Virus record (IMG/VR): IMGVR_UViG_3300006990_000085
Coordinates: 1-35,237 of that record
DNA length: 35,237 nucleotides
From: a virus
Reading direction: 5' to 3' (one strand)
Shown here: one piece after another, positions 18,888 to 26,959 of the stretch
Layout: the number at the start of each line of letters is the position of its first letter
Numbering within the stretch: position 1 is the stretch's first letter
The notes under the pieces: generated by a model
What the model was told of the DNA's origin: nothing
The model's input: only the letters and a program-made list of their open reading frames with translations
Database searches by the model: none
Program-made: the position numbers and the translations under genes

Positions 18888-20099
18888 ATGTTAGCAATCA
18901 ACACACAACTATCAGCCGAGCAACGGCTCACTAAAAACATCACAACCATTATGGGTAACCCCAAGTACGTTGCACTAGCAGGTGTACTGATGATCGGTGA
19001 CAAGGGTATCAAGGACGACTGCCCGACTGCCTACACTAATGGACGTGATGACCACTATGGACGTGCGTTTGTTGATGGGTTAAGTGACTCAGAGTTTCGA
19101 TTCTTGATACTCCATGAGACTTACCACAAGCTGTTCAAGCACCTGACCACATGGGAGCACTTGTACAAAGACGATCGCAAACTAGCTAACGAAGCGTGTG
19201 ACTATGTAATCAACTTGATGATTACGGATGAGAACCGTGATGGGTTTGCAACCATGCCCAAAGATGAACGGGGTAATACTATCGGACTACTTGACGAGCG
19301 GTTCCGTGGTATGGACACAGCACAGGTGTACAAGTTACTCAAACAAAATAAGGAGGATAGCCCAGAGCAACAACAGGGTGAAGGCCAAGGTGAAGGTGCA
19401 GGGTTAGATGAACACGATTGGGAAGGTGCCCAAGAGATGACTGCCGAAGAGCAACGTGATCTAACACAAGAGATCGACCAAGCAGTCCGACAAGGTGCAC
19501 TACTTGCCGGTAAGGTAGGCAGTGGGGGCAACCGAGCCATCGACCAACTACTACGATCCGAGGTGGACTGGCGTGAAGCACTGCGTGAGTTCGTTACAGA
19601 AACGTGTCGGGGTAATGATGACAGCACATGGCGTAGACCAAGCCGACGGCATATGGCGATGAACATCTTACGACCCAGTGGTATCACTGAACGAGTGGGT
19701 GAACTAGTCATTGCTATCGACACGTCAGGTAGTATCGGACAACAAGAGCTAACCCGATGCCTCAGTGAGATCAAGGGTGTATGCGATACGGTCAAGCCCG
19801 AATCTGTTCGGGTACTGTATTGGGATACCAAGGTGTGTGGTGACGAGCAGTATGGTGGGACAGGTACACCGCTCGAACAACTTACACAAACAACTAAGCC
19901 CAAGGGTGGTGGTGGCACTGACGTGCAGTGTGTACCTGACTACATACGTGACAAGAACATCAATGCACAAGCAGTGATCGTGTTGACTGATGGATACCTA
20001 CATGATTGGGGTACGTGGAGTATGCCCCTGCTGTGGACGATCCTAGACAACAAACAAGTAACACCCATCAACGGTAAGACAATTCACGTTAACCTTTAA
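18888..20099 (+). CDS. VWA-domain protein with N-terminal HExxH metallopeptidase-like domain
   Basis: 403 residues. The N-terminal domain has HETYHKLFKH with HExxH at 76-80, and NEACDYVIN at 101-109, which may give a third zinc ligand. This is the DUF2201-type layout. Residues about 165-185 are a Gln/Gly/Glu linker. The C-terminal VWA domain has a MIDAS start AIDTSGS near 277 and LTDGY near 365. VWA proteins of this type work with MoxR ATPases, here encoded just upstream. Whether it cuts peptides is not certain; some family members lack activity, but this one keeps the motif. Confidence 0.85.
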   Translation: MLAINTQLSAEQRLTKNITTIMGNPKYVALAGVLMIGDKGIKDDCPTAYTNGRDDHYGRAFVDGLSDSEFRFLILHETYHKLFKHLTTWEHLYKDDRKLANEACDYVINLMITDENRDGFATMPKDERGNTIGLLDERFRGMDTAQVYKLLKQNKEDSPEQQQGEGQGEGAGLDEHDWEGAQEMTAEEQRDLTQEIDQAVRQGALLAGKVGSGGNRAIDQLLRSEVDWREALREFVTETCRGNDDSTWRRPSRRHMAMNILRPSGITERVGELVIAIDTSGSIGQQELTRCLSEIKGVCDTVKPESVRVLYWDTKVCGDEQYGGTGTPLEQLTQTTKPKGGGGTDVQCVPDYIRDKNINAQAVIVLTDGYLHDWGTWSMPLLWTILDNKQVTPINGKTIHVNL

Positions 20100-21091: not shown

Positions 21092-21365
21092 CATTCAAGA
21101 CTTGACTACATACAGAGTCGAATTCATTGGGGATACAGCTAAGATAATCTGTTTAGGTATCCCTGTAGCACCCTGTGAGTTTGGCAGTGAGGAAACAAGT
21201 ATACCTATCGTTGATATGCCTGACTGGATGACGCGACGCGTAGCCGTGCTATCTACTATGGCTTACGAGCCACCGACAGAGTTTGTCACTAACATTGGTA
21301 GACGCATAGAGAAGTATGTCTATTGGGTATTTTATGAGGGGGACAATGATGGCGATGACACCTGA
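21081..21365 (+). CDS. Small phage protein with TTG start, function unknown
   Basis: 94 residues from a TTG at 21081, with AAGAGGTAG 8 bp ahead as ribosome-binding site; there is no ATG before residue 46. It contains YRVEFIGDTAKIICLG and ends in an acidic tail (EGDNDGDDT) created where its 3' end overlaps the ribosome-binding site of the nuclease gene. No family recognised. The TTG start is unusual and should be checked against homologues. Confidence 0.55.
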   Translation: MPTNIQDLTTYRVEFIGDTAKIICLGIPVAPCEFGSEETSIPIVDMPDWMTRRVAVLSTMAYEPPTEFVTNIGRRIEKYVYWVFYEGDNDGDDT

Positions 21366-21636
21366 AAAGAAAGTAAAGGATAAGGTAGCTAAGGTACTCA
21401 AACAACTTGGTGCTTACTACTTCTTCCCCGCAACAGGTGGGTATGGACGTAGTGGTGTACCGGATATAGTCGGGTGCTACAACGGTAAGTTCTTCGGTAT
21501 CGAGTGTAAGGCAGGAAAGAATACCACAACAGCCTTACAGGAGCTTGAACTGGAGAAGATACGCAAGGCAGGAGGGATTGCTCTTGTGGTTAATGAAAAC
21601 AATGTGGGAGATGTAGAGGGATTAGTAAGGGGGTAG
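21349..21636 (+). CDS. VRR-NUC domain nuclease
   Basis: 95 residues from ATG at 21349 (21346 and 21355 also possible), with GAGGGGG upstream. It has the core GVPDIVGCYNGKFFGIECKA, the PD-(D/E)xK active site of the VRR-NUC family: Asp in PDIV, Glu and Lys in IECKAG. Compact stand-alone VRR-NUC enzymes are common in phages, where they act on branched or flap DNA. An SNF2-type helicase typical of the same replication systems lies downstream at 27878. The start of an earlier frame (21316) has no ribosome-binding site. Confidence 0.88.
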   Translation: MAMTPEKKVKDKVAKVLKQLGAYYFFPATGGYGRSGVPDIVGCYNGKFFGIECKAGKNTTTALQELELEKIRKAGGIALVVNENNVGDVEGLVRG

Positions 21637-21844
21637 GTTTTCGTTGTTTGTCCTACCCCAGACCCCAGTAGCCGGTGGGTCGGGATCATATGCCCTAAAA
21701 CAGCTACAGCGTACGCTTGGGTAACACTGAGAGAGGGTATCCCTTCCCAGCTCCGCTTAGGTGAGTACGTCGGTTAAGCCACGCTACGGTTAGTCGTGCG
21801 AGTAACGTAAAGTTCTCTGAATAGGTGGAGCTACCTTACGTTAC
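21630..21844 (+). ncRNA. Structured intergenic segment, possible small RNA or leader
   Basis: The gap between the VRR-NUC gene and 21881 has no gene but several inverted repeats: GGGGTAGG/CCTACCCC (21630-21637 and 21652-21659), a GACCC/GGGTC pair, the palindrome AGCGTACGCT (21708-21717), and GTAACGTAA/TTACGTTAC (21802-21810 and 21836-21844). The last arms enclose GGTGGAGCTACC, itself able to fold. No tRNA cloverleaf was found. Its nature as RNA is a proposal. Confidence 0.35.
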
Positions 21845-21880
21845 AGACCACGCACTTTAACTTAACTAAGGAGAACACGT

Positions 21881-22066
21881 ATGCCTAAATACAAAGTAAC
21901 GCGTATATACAGTTATCCCGCGTCGGCAGTAATCACTGCACCTAATTTAGAATCGGCAGAGCGCATGGTTGAGGACATAGATGGCGCAGAGTTTGTGCAA
22001 TATGACGATGCCCTATCCGATTCATGGGTCCATTCAATAACACAACAGGAGGACGATGATGACTAG
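21881..22066 (+). CDS. Small acidic protein, function unknown
   Basis: 61 residues. It begins MPKYKVTRIYSYPASAVITA, a beta-hairpin-like start, then a helical segment (SAERMVEDIDGAEFV), and ends ITQQEDDDD. AAGGAGAACACGT precedes the ATG. The acidic tail is encoded by the ribosome-binding site of the next gene (GGAGGACGATGATG), so its sequence is set by overlap. Related small proteins with a YxVxxxYxxxAxxI pattern occur in phages; role unknown. Confidence 0.65.
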   Translation: MPKYKVTRIYSYPASAVITAPNLESAERMVEDIDGAEFVQYDDALSDSWVHSITQQEDDDD

Positions 22067-22565
22067 GTATGAAAATATTGGGGGCGTAGTAACCGACGCA
22101 CATTACTGGGATTGTGAATGCGATACCGATTACATCCATCATATGAGCGATGTTGAGCCTTGCGAAAAATGCGGTGCTGATCCGGACGAACAGCCTAACT
22201 CAAGACCCGATGAAATAGCTAAAGCTTTTAATGAGTTTGAGAGAGCGGAACACGATGAAATAGCGTCAGAGGTTACAAAACTTCGTCGTTTTAACGTATC
22301 GGTTTGTCTCGATAGGTTTGTCGATGTCGTAGCTGATAGCGAGGTAGAGGCTAAAAGAATAGCTCAATCGAGAATTGACGAACTTGTGAGAGACTTGTTA
22401 GCAACCCGCGTATCCGCTTGGGATATGGCAGTTGGTGACATGTTTTACGAACCGTTAGGGTCAGTCGAAGAAACTGAAGCTGATGACGAAAACGAGGCGT
22501 GGCATTGGGCTTTGCGATCCAAAGATTACCCAAAGAAAGATGACAAGGAGGACGATGATGAGTAA
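22056..22565 (+). CDS. Zinc-binding acidic protein, function unknown
   Basis: 169 residues. A Cys cluster near the N-terminus (DCEC at 19-22 and CEKC at 36-39) suggests a zinc ribbon. The middle resembles the helical part of the upstream 61-residue protein: RFNVSVCLDRFVDVVADSEV then EAKRIAQSRIDE, so the two may be related. The end is strongly acidic (KKDDKEDDDE). AACACAACAGGAGGACGATG precedes the second ATG. It overlaps the IS110-like gene by 8 bp through the same type of coupled ribosome-binding site. Confidence 0.65.
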   Translation: MMTRYENIGGVVTDAHYWDCECDTDYIHHMSDVEPCEKCGADPDEQPNSRPDEIAKAFNEFERAEHDEIASEVTKLRRFNVSVCLDRFVDVVADSEVEAKRIAQSRIDELVRDLLATRVSAWDMAVGDMFYEPLGSVEETEADDENEAWHWALRSKDYPKKDDKEDDDE

Positions 22566-23424
22566 CTTAAAAACAATAGTAAGGGGCGCGTACGATATAC
22601 AGAAGAATAGAATCCAGACAGGTAATCGTTTGGTAGGAAACTTCAAAGCTAAACTTGGGCAAGCACCGAGTGAGAAGGAAGATACAATCGACAAGGATGG
22701 GCAACAGATACTTGTTAACCTACGTAGGGCACACAGACTGCTTACCGAAGGAGTGGCTAGCTTTCCAAGGCAAGCTACGTTCAAGGGTGATGAGGTCATC
22801 AGTGACTACACCGAGTTGTGTCTGGTGGATAACTACCTAGAACTGGAGACGCAAGAAAAGAATCACTTCAGACGTTTAGGTAATATCCTCAAAGGTTACC
22901 CTATCTACTCTCAATTTCTTGAAAATGTAACAGGCGTTGGTCCTGCTATGGCAGGGGTAATACTTAGTGAAATAGATATTAGTAGAGCTGAGTATCCATC
23001 TAGCTTACACAAGTATGCAGGGTTAGATGTTGCAAGTGATGGGCAGGGGCGTAGCCGTAAGAAGGAACACTTAGAGGAGAGTGAATACGTAGACAAAGAC
23101 GGTAACCCTCAAACCAAGAAAGGTATTACTTTTAACCCATTCCTTAAGACCAAGTTAGTAGGTGTATTAGGTAGTAGTTTCATCAAACAATCGCCAGACA
23201 AGTGTAAGTATCGTAAGGTGTATGATGATTACAAGCACCGACTAGAGCATATGGATGCCCATAAAGAGAAGTCCAAGGGACACCGACATAACATGGCAGT
23301 GCGGTATATGATTAAGATTTTCTTAATTGATCTGTACAACGAGTGGCGTAGCATCGAGGGGCTACCCGTTGCTCCAACATACAGCGAAGCTAAACTAGGT
23401 AAAGTACATAAGGTAGCCGCCTAG
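22558..23424 (+). CDS. IS110-like transposase C-domain protein lacking the DEDD domain
   Basis: 288 residues from ATG at 22558 (22555 possible), after AAGGAGGACG. Residues 123-139 (NVTGVGPAMAGVILSEI) are a helix-hairpin-helix and 150-160 (LHKYAGLDVAS) match the conserved core of Transposase_20, the C-terminal domain of IS110/IS116 transposases. Residues 240-265 end as in that domain (KGHRHNMAVRYMIKIFLIDL). The usual N-terminal RuvC-like DEDD domain is absent: residues 1-110 are basic helices without Asp-rich motifs. No terminal repeats of an IS were found. The conserved array at 23428 starts 3 nt after its stop, so protein and array may form one functional unit; that is a hypothesis. Confidence 0.8.
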   Translation: MSNLKTIVRGAYDIQKNRIQTGNRLVGNFKAKLGQAPSEKEDTIDKDGQQILVNLRRAHRLLTEGVASFPRQATFKGDEVISDYTELCLVDNYLELETQEKNHFRRLGNILKGYPIYSQFLENVTGVGPAMAGVILSEIDISRAEYPSSLHKYAGLDVASDGQGRSRKKEHLEESEYVDKDGNPQTKKGITFNPFLKTKLVGVLGSSFIKQSPDKCKYRKVYDDYKHRLEHMDAHKEKSKGHRHNMAVRYMIKIFLIDLYNEWRSIEGLPVAPTYSEAKLGKVHKVAA

Positions 23425-23427
23425 CTA

Positions 23428-23982
23428 AACGAGTCATTGGAATGAAGACAACCACTGCCCAAGAGCGAGTCATGGTGGGCGAGACAACCAGCTATGCCGA
23501 ACGAGTCATACTACCCAAGACAACCATGCGCCAAAAGCGAGTCAATCATGGAAAAAGACAGCCAAAAGAATGTAACGAGTCATACGACGCGAGACAACCA
23601 TGTGCCACAAGCGAGTCATCGAGTAAGAGACAACCAAAGTACATGAACGAGTCACATAAATGAAGACAACCACAGAAAGGAAACGAGTCAATGTTAGTGA
23701 GGCAACCATAGTTATTTAACGAGCCATAAGAAAAAAGACAATCAAACCAGTAGAGCGAGTCAAGGAGCGTCATAGACAACCAAAAAATTTGAACGAGTCA
23801 TTCGCATGGAGAGAACCACAAAACAGGAACGAGTCATTCGTATGGAGACAACCAAATAAATGGAACGAGTGCCACTAACCAGAATACAACCAATAACTCA
23901 GAGCGAGTCACATGAAGATAGGCAACCAGTAGTTCCAAACGAGTCAAATGCAATTAGAAACCCATATAAAGTAAGCGAGTCA
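23428..23982 (+). repeat. Array of alternating 9-nt motifs with 9-nt variable segments (31 motifs)
   Basis: Two motifs alternate strictly: ARCGAGTCA (16 copies, core CGAGTCA exact in 14) and AGACAACCA-like (15 copies, GACAACCA exact in 8). Taken as 9-mers they sit every 18 nt, with 9 variable bases between. A-motif cores start at 23430, 23466, 23502, 23538, 23576, 23612, 23648, 23684, 23720, 23756, 23794, 23830, 23866, 23904, 23940 and 23976. Spacing is 36 nt except three 38-nt steps; the extra 2 nt always fall between A and B, never between B and A. Variable segments show no common sequence, although two neighbours (TTCGCATGG, TTCGTATGG) are near copies. Substitutions in the motifs are concentrated in the second half. 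It starts 3 nt after the IS110-like gene and ends 1 nt before the Shine-Dalgarno (AAGGAGG) of the next gene, so it is probably transcribed with both. Confidence 0.95.
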
Positions 23983-23998
23983 TTAAGGAGGAAGAACT

Positions 23999-24145
23999 AT
24001 GAACCGAGATAGAGACCCAGTAATGGTAGACCTTAATCGTTACCTTATGACACAGGAAGATGATTACGTAGACCCCCTCGAAGCTGAGATACAATACCAA
24101 GAGTATCTTGCAGATCAGGATGAGGGTTGGAGGGACGACGAATGA
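23999..24145 (+). CDS. 48-residue acidic protein after the array
   Basis: ATG at 23999 after a perfect AAGGAGG, TGA at 24143. It begins MNRDRDPVMVDLNRYLMTQE and ends DQDEGWRDDE, with an acidic middle. Its stop overlaps the start of the next gene (ATGA at 24142), so the two are co-translated. No family recognised. The strong ribosome-binding site indicates that the array transcript continues into coding sequence. Confidence 0.65.
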   Translation: MNRDRDPVMVDLNRYLMTQEDDYVDPLEAEIQYQEYLADQDEGWRDDE

Positions 24146-24324
24146 AACGACTAACTAAGGCAAGGCTTAGGAGAGAGCTGTCTATACTTAAACAGGACAT
24201 AAAAGACTTACAGCAAGCTGAGAAGATATGGGAAGGACTTCTTGCTAGTTGGCCTGATACCACCGACTACATCTATGTGGATGAAGAAGGTGCAGTTGAA
24301 GAAACTACTGGAGCATTACACTAA
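24142..24324 (+). CDS. Small coiled-coil protein, function unknown
   Basis: 60 residues from ATG at 24142; an earlier TTG at 24127 is less likely. The N-terminal half is a basic helix of coiled-coil type (KRLTKARLRRELSILKQDIK, then DLQQAEKIWEGLL); the end is acidic (YIYVDEEGAVEETTGALH). It overlaps its neighbours on both sides by 1-4 bp. No family recognised. Confidence 0.65.
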   Translation: MKRLTKARLRRELSILKQDIKDLQQAEKIWEGLLASWPDTTDYIYVDEEGAVEETTGALH

Positions 24325-24557
24325 TGGCACTAATGAAAAACGCTTTAGAGAAACAAACTGGTGGTACTCACTACAAGGATATGGCTATCCAACCGGCAGA
24401 ATACGCCGAGAAGAACGGCTTGTCGTTGCTTGAGGGTAACATCGTTAAGTACATTTCACGTTGGAAAAAGAAAGGTCAACCGCTATCTGATCTCAACAAG
24501 ATCATACACTGCGCGGAACTGATAAAAGAAATCCACAACGTAAGCGAAGACAAATGA
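24324..24557 (+). CDS. DUF3310 protein (T7 gp1.7-like nucleotide kinase family)
   Basis: 77 residues. GGTHYKDMAIQPAEYAEKNG followed by LSLLEGNIVKYISRWKKKGQ is the conserved core of DUF3310, the family linked to T7 gp1.7, reported to act as a nucleotide kinase for dGMP and dTMP. This member is a minimal form containing only the core, so enzyme activity is uncertain. It lies just before the nuclease and DNA polymerase genes, where a nucleotide-supply role would fit. Confidence 0.82.
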   Translation: MALMKNALEKQTGGTHYKDMAIQPAEYAEKNGLSLLEGNIVKYISRWKKKGQPLSDLNKIIHCAELIKEIHNVSEDK

Positions 24558-24685
24558 AATTAACTATAGAGTTAGACGAAGAAGATGTGGAAGAAGTTAT
24601 ACAGCTTATGCACAGAGTTATTGAGGCTGTAGATAAGCTGGAAAACTATCAAGAAACTGGTATCAAGGAGATTGAGGATGAGTGA
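24554..24685 (+). CDS. 43-residue acidic helical peptide
   Basis: ATG at 24554, overlapping the stop of the DUF3310 gene (ATGA), TGA at 24683. It starts MKLTIELDEEDVEEVIQLMH and continues as one long acidic helix. No ribosome-binding site beyond the coupling. Its 3' end encodes the ribosome-binding site of the nuclease gene (AAGGAGATTGAGG) and overlaps that gene by 8 bp. No family recognised. Confidence 0.55.
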   Translation: MKLTIELDEEDVEEVIQLMHRVIEAVDKLENYQETGIKEIEDE

Positions 24686-25097
24686 TCCATATGTGTTTAA
24701 CTGTACGATAGTGCGTGTAATTGATGGAGATACTATAGATGTCGATGTTGATTTGGGCTGGAATGTTGTTATACGCGGTAGTGCTGGTCGCATCCGTTTG
24801 CATGGGGTCGATGCTCCAGAGTCTCGCAATAGAAACGTGGAAGGCAAAGCACATGGCCTCCTTGCCAAAAAATTCGTGCAGGAAAAGCTTAAAGTGGGAG
24901 GAGTATATAAACTCCGAACAAAAGAGAAGGGCAAATTTGGAAGATACTTAGGTGACTTTCAGATAGGTGATAAGTGGCTGTGTGCAGAGCTTGTGGCTAA
25001 CCAACTAGCTGTACCGTACACCGGACAGAATAAAAAAGAAATTGCAAGAGCGCATGAAGCCAATCGCCTGTTGCTAGTCCAGAGGGGCTTACTATAG
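24678..25097 (+). CDS. Staphylococcal nuclease-like (SNase/thermonuclease) protein
   Basis: 139 residues from ATG at 24678. RVIDGDTIDVDVDLG carries the Asp pair of SNase; GRIRLHGVDAPESRN holds the catalytic Arg and the RLxGxDAPE motif; KEKGKFGRYLGDF holds the second Arg. A full single-domain Ca2+-dependent nuclease without a signal peptide, so it acts inside the cell, perhaps on host DNA. It ends in a 1-bp overlap (TAGTG) with the polymerase gene. Confidence 0.88.
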   Translation: MSDPYVFNCTIVRVIDGDTIDVDVDLGWNVVIRGSAGRIRLHGVDAPESRNRNVEGKAHGLLAKKFVQEKLKVGGVYKLRTKEKGKFGRYLGDFQIGDKWLCAELVANQLAVPYTGQNKKEIARAHEANRLLLVQRGLL

Positions 25098-26959
25098 TGA
25101 ACATAATAACCGTAGACTTTGAAACCTATTACGACAAGAAGTTTTCCCTAAGTAAGTTAACGACTGAGCAGTACATACGTAGACCTGACTTTGAAGTAAT
25201 TGGTCTGGGTGTAAAACTAAATAACGAAGAAACAGTTTGGTTAAGTGGAGAACACGATGACATCAAACGGTACTTACACGAGAACTATGATTGGGAAAAC
25301 AGTGCTTTACTGGCTCACAACACCATGTTTGATGGGGCTATTCTTAGTTGGATCTTTGATATTCACCCTAAGTTACTGCTTGATACACTGTGCATGGCGC
25401 GTGGCCTACATGGGGTGGAGGTGGGCGGCTCGTTAAAATATTTGGCTGAAAAGTACGAGATTGGACAGAAGGGCGACGAAGTTGTTAACGCGCTCGGCAT
25501 ACGACGTAAGGACTTTACTGAAGAAGGTTTGTCTAAGTATGGAGATTACTGCATACAAGACGTTGAACTTACCTATAAGTTATTTGGAATCTTTATGAAA
25601 GTGTTTCCAAAGAAAGAACTTAGAGTAATTGATATGACACTACGGATGTTTGTGGAACCTAAACTAAAGTTAAATGTTGCTAAGTTAGAAGACCATTTAG
25701 ATACGCTACAAGAACAGAAAGAGAAGCTGTTAGAGAATTGCGGTATTGAAAAAGCAGAACTTATGTCTAACCCTAAGTTTGCATTAGCACTTGAAGGACT
25801 GGGTGTTAAACCTCCTAAGAAAACTAGTTTACGTACAGAGAAAGAAACGTTTGCCTTTGCTAAGAATGATGAAGCGTTTAAAGCATTGCAAGAACATGAC
25901 GACCCACGAGTGCAAGCTCTAGTAGCCGCACGTATAGGATTGAAGAGTACACTAGAAGAAACGCGTACTGAGAGGTTCATAGACATTGGGTTAGGCGGTA
26001 CATTGCCCGTTCCTATTCGGTACTACGCCGCGCATACAGGACGGTGGGGCGGTTTGGACAAGGTAAACCTACAAAACCTACCATCAAGAGGACCAAATGC
26101 CAAGGTATTGAAATCATGTATTTGCGCTCCTACTGGGTACACGTTGATTGAAGCGGACTCTGCACAAATAGAAGCCCGCGTACTGGCTTGGTTAGCAGAA
26201 CAAAAGGACTTAGTTGAAGCCTTTGAGAAAGGTGAAGATGTCTACAAAAAGATGGCGGCTAGTATATACAACAAGAAAGTAGAGGACGTTGATGCGGCTG
26301 AACGGTTTATCGGCAAGACCACGATCCTAGGCGCAGGGTACGGGATGGGGTCAGTACGGTTCCGAGAACAGCTTTTAGGTATGGGGGTAGAGGTTGAGGC
26401 AAAAGAATGTAGACGGATCATCGACGTGTACAGAAGCACCAACGGTAAGATTACTAGGCTGTGGAGAAATGCTCAAATTGTTTTACAAGGAATGCTACAA
26501 AAAAAGAAATATGCGTTAGGTAAGAAAGATGTGCTTACGGTGTTACCAGAGGTCAAGGGGGTTCGACTGCCATCTAAACTTATCATGCGGTATGAAGACT
26601 TAAAGGTTAAAGAAGGAGAAACAGGCTTAGAGTTTTCTTACAAAACTCGACGAGGCCGAGTCAATATCTATGGTGGTAAGGTAATAGAGAACGTCTGCCA
26701 AGCCATTGCTCGATGTGTCATGTCAGACCAAATGTTAATGATTTCAAAAAGGTATCCTATCTTGCTTACTGTACACGACTCTGTGATATGCTGTGTTCCA
26801 GACGATGAAGTTGACGAGGCGGCGGCTTACGTTGATTCATGTATGCGTCATACACCGGACTGGGCGAAGGGACTTCCAGTGCGTGGCGACGTGGACGTAG
26901 GGAAAAATTACGGAGAGTGTGAAGCATGGGTAAACCCGCATGGTCCTTTAGCAGCATAA
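25097..26959 (+). CDS. DNA polymerase, family A with 3'-5' exonuclease
   Basis: 620 residues, GTG start. Exonuclease domain: ExoI TVDFET (D7, E9), ExoII LLAHNTMFD (D79), ExoIII YGDYCIQD (Y151, D155). Polymerase domain: motif A IEADSAQIEARV (D354), motif B RFIGKTTILGAGYG (K407, Y415) and motif C LLTVHDSV (H560, D561). No 5'-3' exonuclease domain, as in phage replicative enzymes such as T7 gp5. The residue equal to E. coli Phe762 is Leu411. This is the replicative polymerase of the phage, placed between the SNase-like and RecB-like nucleases, with which it overlaps. Confidence 0.95.
   Translation: MNIITVDFETYYDKKFSLSKLTTEQYIRRPDFEVIGLGVKLNNEETVWLSGEHDDIKRYLHENYDWENSALLAHNTMFDGAILSWIFDIHPKLLLDTLCMARGLHGVEVGGSLKYLAEKYEIGQKGDEVVNALGIRRKDFTEEGLSKYGDYCIQDVELTYKLFGIFMKVFPKKELRVIDMTLRMFVEPKLKLNVAKLEDHLDTLQEQKEKLLENCGIEKAELMSNPKFALALEGLGVKPPKKTSLRTEKETFAFAKNDEAFKALQEHDDPRVQALVAARIGLKSTLEETRTERFIDIGLGGTLPVPIRYYAAHTGRWGGLDKVNLQNLPSRGPNAKVLKSCICAPTGYTLIEADSAQIEARVLAWLAEQKDLVEAFEKGEDVYKKMAASIYNKKVEDVDAAERFIGKTTILGAGYGMGSVRFREQLLGMGVEVEAKECRRIIDVYRSTNGKITRLWRNAQIVLQGMLQKKKYALGKKDVLTVLPEVKGVRLPSKLIMRYEDLKVKEGETGLEFSYKTRRGRVNIYGGKVIENVCQAIARCVMSDQMLMISKRYPILLTVHDSVICCVPDDEVDEAAAYVDSCMRHTPDWAKGLPVRGDVDVGKNYGECEAWVNPHGPLAA

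What the first reader, a model, noticed from the sequence alone, without database searches (positions are those of the whole stretch)
23428..23982. Regular array of two alternating 9-nt motifs with 9-nt variable segments
31 conserved 9-mers (ARCGAGTCA and AGACAACCA types) alternate strictly at 18-nt spacing, giving a 36-nt unit repeated 15.5 times. The nine bases between motifs differ every time. Of 30 variable segments 27 are exactly 9 nt and three are 11 nt. Both 9-mers fit one degenerate form, ARMSARYCA, so the array may descend from a single 18-nt repeat that split into two types. The pattern is too short for CRISPR and does not fit known iteron, DGR or tRNA arrays that I know. It must be under selection as DNA or RNA, since the spacing and motifs are kept while segments vary. 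Possible roles: a guide-like RNA array, a binding scaffold or decoy for a protein, or an origin.
Basis: seen in the sequence. Interest (0 to 1): 0.97.

Follow-up and report, generated by a model that had tools for sequence, protein, structure and literature searches.

The report
Phage TIGR-TasA dual-guide RNA array
A marine phage genome carries a TIGR-Tas system: a guide-RNA-binding protein without a nuclease, followed by an array of 15 small RNAs that each hold two 9-letter guides; the family was described in 2025, and comparing about 850 of these guides shows an unexpected link between the last letters of the two halves.

Summary
It is a TIGR array of the TIGR-Tas RNA-guided systems (Faure et al. 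2025, PMC12045711), 3 nt downstream of a TasA gene (22558-23424). The protein passes NCBI's curated TIGR-Tas model (122 bits, cutoff 100). Its only PDB sequence relatives are TasR and TasH, and its predicted fold matches them best, without their nuclease domains. The experimentally studied SpTIGR array of Salicola phage CGphi29 has the same loop 9-mer and nearly the same edge repeat. Dual-repeat arrays lie beside the gene in all 36 first-scan loci and 62 of 66 added loci. Covariation across 36-nt units shows that the two ends of each unit, from neighbouring edge repeats, pair with each other, so the product is an RNA cut inside the edge repeats. Natural targets were not found, in the phage itself or in about 2 Mb of relatives. 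One feature contradicts the original description: the last bases of spacers A and B covary as an A-U pair (z 34, strongest of 990 position pairs). Verdict: new member of a known kind, plus one possibly new guide constraint.

The parts
22558..23424 (+). tasA: solo Nop-domain Tas protein, 288 aa (start ATG at 22558 by alignment with relatives; the longer ORF from 22483 overlaps the upstream gene)
   Evidence: NCBIfam NF052498 TIGR_Tas_endo 122 bits against cutoff 100; PDB profile hits only TasR 9mty (7e-23) and TasH (2e-15); fold Z 20 to TasH, 19 to TasR, starting after their nuclease domains; start by alignment A1
23428..23982 (+). TIGR array: 16 edge repeats (ARCGAGTCA) and 15 loop repeats (AGACAACCA) with 15 spacers A and 15 spacers B = 15 predicted tigRNAs
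   Evidence: same loop 9-mer as the SpTIGR array of Salicola phage CGphi29
23428..23436 (+). first (complete) edge repeat AACGAGTCA, 3 nt after the tasA stop codon
23437..23445 (+). spacer A of unit 1 (TTGGAATGA), given as an example
23446..23454 (+). loop repeat of unit 1 (AGACAACCA)
23455..23463 (+). spacer B of unit 1 (CTGCCCAAG)
23536..23573 (+). irregular 38-nt unit 4 (11-nt spacer A ATCATGGAAAA)
   Evidence: the same unit is in relative L002
23754..23791 (+). irregular 38-nt unit 10 (11-nt spacer A AGGAGCGTCAT)
23864..23901 (+). irregular 38-nt unit 13, best read as an 11-nt edge repeat AACGAGTGCCA with 9-nt spacers
23974..23982 (+). last (complete) edge repeat AGCGAGTCA, running straight into the ribosome-binding site of the next gene; no terminator-like site in 21800-25200
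23999..24145 (+). downstream 48-aa ORF (unknown function) with AGGAGG before its ATG, co-oriented with tasA and the array
   Evidence: sequence; orthologue follows the array in L001/L002

Best explanation
It is a TIGR-TasA system carried as accessory cargo in the replication region of a marine tailed phage. Inferred from the family: tasA and the array are transcribed together, and the RNA is cut in the middle of each edge repeat into 15 tigRNAs of about 36 nt (three of 38). Shown by covariation: the two ends of each unit pair (edge position 6 with position 3 of the next edge, and 7 with 2), and positions 2 and 7 pair within the loop repeat, so the functional product is this RNA. Inferred from TasR/TasH: a TasA dimer holds one tigRNA, spacer A pairs with one DNA strand and spacer B with the other strand of an adjacent site of about 17-20 bp, and the DNA is unwound and bent. 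As this TasA has no nuclease, the likely outcome is sequence-specific binding that blocks transcription or replication of foreign DNA (rival phages, other mobile elements or host genes) rather than cutting. Spacers turn over fast and do not match the phage's own genome beyond chance, which favours targets in trans. The confidence given is for TIGR-TasA identity; for the in-trans blocking role it is about 0.6.
For: Protein: NCBIfam TIGR_Tas_endo 122 bits > cutoff 100 while IS110 reaches 26 of 140; PDB sequence hits only TasR and TasH; fold Z 20.4 TasH, 19.0 TasR, 13.6 IS110, 7 Nop5. Array: two alternating 9-nt repeats, 9-nt spacers, next to the gene. Positive control: the published SpTIGR array has loop AAGACAACCA and edge AAGCGAGCCA (host phage named in PMC12045711). 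Conservation: arrays beside Tas in 36/36 first-scan loci and 62/66 added loci, three of the other four with tas at a contig end. RNA: E6-E'3 paired in 99.5% of 978 units (GC 867, AU 99) and E7-E'2 in 97.9%; within arrays the 7-2 link holds across neighbouring edges (OR 10.3) but not inside one repeat (OR 0.84). Cargo: relatives with the same flanking genes lack it, and its neighbours differ between phages. Trans targets: 943 units, none within one mismatch in own contigs. Processing and targeting rules: PMC12045711.
Against: No RNA data; processing, DNA binding and effect are inferred from relatives. No natural target found. The array lacks the terminator and truncated end repeats that the paper calls typical. 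The NCBIfam model is named endonuclease, while this protein has no nuclease domain. Own-genome searches covered the held parts of contigs only, many of them incomplete.
Confidence: 0.95

Rival explanations
1. TIGR-TasA used in cis: the tigRNAs bind the phage's own genome to regulate its genes, replication or integration (the paper's suggestion of aid to integrases).
For: TasA has no nuclease, so self-binding is not lethal; the locus sits in the replication operon.
Against: 943 units against own contigs: 0 matches with up to one mismatch and 1 with two, equal to wrong-order and wrong-strand controls. Spacers differ between phages whose TasA is 98% identical.
Confidence: 0.1
2. A box C/D-like guide acting on RNA (host or phage transcripts) instead of DNA.
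For: Nop-domain fold shared with Nop5/Prp31 (Z about 7) and C/D-like repeats.
Against: The closest solved relatives, TasR and TasH, were solved on DNA targets; TasR had no activity on RNA (PMC12045711).
Confidence: 0.05
3. An IS110-family transposase gene with an unrelated DNA repeat array, such as an origin with iterons.
For: Pfam Transposase_20 at 6e-5 and phrog_4285 'transposase'; lies in a replication region.
Against: IS110 model far below its cutoff (26 of 140 bits); aligned regions and fold match TasR/TasH better and lack the catalytic domain; spacers are variable and edge repeats covary across the unit as RNA pairs; iterons would not show this.
Confidence: 0.02
4. A repetitive protein-coding stretch.
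For: The unit of 36 nt is a multiple of three; ORFs of 73 and 77 aa overlap the array.
Against: Stops in all six frames; units of 37-38 nt break the frame.
Confidence: 0.005

Closest known systems
SpTIGR-TasH, Salicola phage CGphi29 (HQ634153)
   Same: Loop repeat AGACAACCA identical; edge AGCGAGCCA against ARCGAGTCA, the change being a compensated G-C to A-U pair; 36-nt unit; array downstream of the gene; homologous Nop part (tblastn 4e-8)
   Different: TasH carries an N-terminal HNH nuclease, TasA here does not; spacers there are 8 nt with 10-nt repeats; that array ends in a terminator-like hairpin, this one runs into the next gene
FpTIGR-TasA (Flavonifractor plautii), dual-repeat TasA
   Same: Solo Nop-domain effector with dual-repeat array and two 9-nt spacers (PMC12045711)
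   Different: Not aligned here; other host; its repeats were not compared
TaTIGR-TasR (PDB 9mty)
   Same: Best PDB sequence match (7e-23); fold Z 19 over the Nop part
   Different: RuvC nuclease absent here; repeats there begin UG, here AR
IS110 / IS621 bridge-RNA recombinases
   Same: Shared RNA-binding fold (Z about 13.5) and two-part guide idea
   Different: No DEDD catalytic domain, array of many units instead of one bridge RNA, NCBIfam IS110 cutoff not reached
Box C/D snoRNPs (Nop5)
   Same: Nop fold, guide RNA with C/D-like boxes
   Different: Distant (Z about 7); no L7Ae or fibrillarin partners sought here; tigRNA is compact

Membership tests
TIGR-Tas (dual-repeat type) | Tas protein with Nop domain of the Tas family | tested here: met
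   NCBIfam NF052498 122 bits against cutoff 100; PDB hits TasR/TasH only; fold Z 19-20
TIGR-Tas (dual-repeat type) | Adjacent array of two alternating 8-12-nt repeats with 9-nt spacers | tested here: met
   adjacency conserved in relatives
TIGR-Tas (dual-repeat type) | C/D-like boxes that covary between and within edge and loop repeats, including the extra edge base pair | tested here: met
   E6-E'3, E7-E'2 and L2-L7 are three of the four strongest covarying pairs
TIGR-Tas (dual-repeat type) | Transcript processed into 36-nt tigRNAs bound by Tas | not testable with these tools
   Needs small-RNA sequencing; supported indirectly by cross-unit pairing
TIGR-Tas (dual-repeat type) | Tandem-spacer DNA targeting, one spacer per strand | tested here: inconclusive
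   No natural target found in about 2 Mb of phage DNA or by four IMG/VR pattern scans
TIGR-Tas (dual-repeat type) | Truncated end repeats and a terminator after the array (typical in the paper, not a required feature) | tested here: not met
   Complete edge repeats at both ends; no terminator-like site; next gene follows
TasA subtype | Nop domain without N-terminal nuclease | tested here: met
   Model residue 1 aligns to TasH residue 68 and TasR residue 111; 288 aa with no nuclease family hit
IS110 transposase | Curated IS110 model and DEDD catalytic domain | tested here: not met
   26 bits against cutoff 140; only the RNA-binding part aligns
CRISPR array | One repeat type of 25-36 nt with spacers of similar size | tested here: not met
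   Two alternating 9-nt repeats, 9-nt spacers

The most novel reading that the evidence does not exclude
The two spacers of a tigRNA are not independent: the last base of spacer A and the last base of spacer B are coupled as a Watson-Crick A-U pair (A:U and U:A in excess; U:U, U:G, G:U and A:A avoided), in several repeat clades. Either the two half-targets share one central A-T base pair in part of the guides, or position 9 belongs to the RNA scaffold, leaving 8+8 targeting bases as in SpTIGR. Faure et al. reported no obvious covariation between spacers A and B.
Probability: 0.6. Interest if true: 0.6.

Novelty: new member of a known kind. Interest (0 to 1): 0.45.

Why it matters
It adds a cleanly readable TIGR-TasA locus and about 65 distinct related arrays from environmental phages, enough to show by sequence alone which bases of the tigRNA pair, that the array changes fast while the protein does not, and that own-genome targeting is not visible. 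TasA is the most common and least understood Tas effector and its targets are unknown. The coupling of the two spacers' last bases would change how guides are designed and how targets are searched (8+8, 17 or 18 bp).

Tried and rejected
(1) Self or related-phage targets: A + rc(B) with gaps of 0-4 bp against about 2 Mb non-redundant phage DNA. Once the loci fetched with the query patterns themselves are set aside, there is no clear excess over wrong-order, wrong-strand or shuffled pairs. (2) A 17-bp target with a shared central base: 1 exact and 13 one-mismatch matches against 0 and 5-8 in controls, but several are the same site; not significant. (3) Four IMG/VR pattern scans for single units or unit families gave only scattered, chance-like hits. 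A lead from an L005 unit matching a conserved exonuclease site in relatives at 16 of 17 did not hold: the four exact IMG/VR hits lie in other genes. (4) Spacer variants tracking synonymous codon changes: p 0.03-0.1 after removing redundancy, dropped. (5) CRISPR-like polarity of unit turnover: none (mean shift 0.006, p 0.36). (6) Protein-coding reading: stops in all frames. (7) Rfam and tRNA scans: nothing in the window. (8) Whether this contig is already in Table S1 of the paper could not be checked (supplements not available).

Full report
What was checked. A chain search gives a score of 334 in the window against at most 15.5 in 30 dinucleotide shuffles. One of the 11-nt segments is better read as an insertion inside the repeat (AACGAGTGCCA, unit 13). 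The stretch is not coding, contains no Rfam family, and no tRNA lies in the window.

The gene beside it. The ORF that ends 3 nt before the array (22558-23424 by alignment with relatives) hits Pfam Transposase_20, the RNA-binding part of IS110 transposases (6e-5). NCBIfam's TIGR-Tas model scores 122 bits against a cutoff of 100, whereas IS110 reaches 26 of 140. A profile of 19 relatives finds only two proteins in the PDB, TasR (9mty, 7e-23) and TasH (2e-15). An AlphaFold2 model (mean pLDDT 76) matches TasH (Z 20.4) and TasR (Z 19.0), then IS110 recombinases (Z about 13.5), then Nop5 and Prp31 (Z about 7). Its first residue aligns to TasH residue 68 and TasR residue 111, so the nuclease domains are missing. 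This is a TasA.

The paper's definition. Faure et al. (PMC12045711) define TIGR arrays as two alternating 8-12-nt repeats, edge and loop, with mostly 9-nt spacers, next to a Nop-domain Tas protein, processed into 36-nt tigRNAs; spacer A pairs with one DNA strand and spacer B with the other. The window fits. In Salicola phage CGphi29, whose SpTIGR array was shown in that paper to yield 36-nt RNAs, the repeats are AAGCGAGCCA and AAGACAACCA: the same loop 9-mer as here, and an edge repeat that differs by one compensated base pair.

Relatives. Scans of IMG/VR gave 36 loci with the gene, all with a dual-repeat array beside it, and 66 further loci, 62 with an array; in three of the four others the gene lies at a contig end. 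Some of these fetches cover the same contig twice; after removing near-duplicates, 66 distinct arrays remain. Sixteen loci from bacterial and archaeal assemblies also turned up, 15 with arrays. The cassette is accessory: phages with orthologues of its flanking genes and a DNA polymerase about 80% identical lack it, and in other phages it sits elsewhere in the replication region. Arrays of phages whose TasA is 98% identical share only about half of their units.

Evidence that the product is RNA and where it is cut. Over 978 units, position 6 of an edge repeat pairs with position 3 of the next edge repeat in 99.5% (867 G-C, 99 A-U), and position 7 with position 2 in 97.9%. Within arrays the 7-2 link exists across neighbouring edge repeats (odds ratio 10.3, z 6.2) but not inside the same repeat (odds ratio 0.84, z -0.4). 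Where position 6 departs from the array's usual base (33 cases), the next edge repeat still pairs in 29, by a double Watson-Crick change in 27; the same repeat would do so in 16 and 9. The two ends of one 36-nt unit therefore pair with each other, as in the TasR structure described in the paper. The window follows: the edge repeat with C at position 7 (23718) is followed by one with G at position 2.

An unexpected covariation. A search of all 990 position pairs of the unit, corrected for differences between arrays (846 units, 68 arrays), puts three known pairs among the top four (E6-E'3, L2-L7, E7-E'2). The strongest of all is the last base of spacer A with the last base of spacer B (z 34.5). 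A:U (110 observed, 73 expected) and U:A (139, 103) are in excess; U:U (11, 29), G:U (18, 34), U:G (20, 39) and A:A (148, 192) are avoided. It appears separately in several repeat clades (z 6.2, 4.6, 3.2, 2.9), weakly in the independent genome set (z 2.0), and not between neighbouring units. A mixture in which about 21% of units hold an A-U pair describes the table far better than independence, though not perfectly (chi-square 13 on 5 df against 119 on 9). In the window's own array the fraction is at chance. The paper states that spacers A and B show no obvious covariation. Two readings remain: a shared central base pair of the target, or a scaffold pair in the RNA.

Targets. None were found. 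The search covered own contigs, about 2 Mb of relatives and four IMG/VR pattern scans, with wrong-order, wrong-strand and shuffled controls for the local searches. Own-genome matches are at chance level, which speaks against regulation of the phage itself, within the limits of incomplete contigs.

How it most likely works. Shown: the protein family, the array anatomy, and the RNA pairing. Inferred: one transcript, processing to about 36-nt tigRNAs by a host RNase with TasA bound, a TasA dimer on DNA with each spacer on one strand, and silencing or blocking of foreign DNA without cutting. Unlike the typical arrays of the paper, this one ends in a complete edge repeat that runs into the ribosome-binding site of the next gene, with no terminator-like site, so array and operon are probably one transcript.

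Verdict. The coupling of the two spacers is the part that may be new.

Noticed in passing
related loci L001-L355, last base of spacers A and B: The last bases of spacers A and B covary as an A-U pair (z 34.5), which the original TIGR-Tas paper does not report.
   Followed up: yes
window 23974-24000: The array's last repeat runs straight into the ribosome-binding site of a 48-aa ORF, with no terminator, so tigRNA processing may affect expression of that gene.
   Followed up: partly
L073, L075, L088 against window 21316-24145: Relatives carry orthologues of the flanking genes without tasA and the array; elsewhere (L005, L010, L285) the cassette sits between other replication genes: it moves as a unit, by an unknown route.
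   Followed up: partly
window/L001 and L002 arrays: Phages with 98% identical TasA share only about half of their units, in partly changed order; no overall polarity of turnover across 28 pairs of related arrays.
   Followed up: yes
L343 (Micrarchaeum assembly) and L349 (Spirochaetales assembly): Tas homologues with long, low-scoring arrays of divergent repeats (AATGAATTA/AATCACCTA; ATAAATCCA/AGTGAATCA), possibly other TIGR subtypes.
   Followed up: no
L355:3511-3830 (Microcystis phage Mvi-JY20): An isolated cyanophage carries a Tas gene annotated only as hypothetical, with an array (ATGCGAGCC / ACGAAACCC) ending in a terminator-like hairpin: a cultured system for tests.
   Followed up: no
window 18888-20099: A separate gene matching an HNH endonuclease family (phrog_1314, 7e-86) lies upstream on the same strand; no link to TasA was tested.
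   Followed up: no
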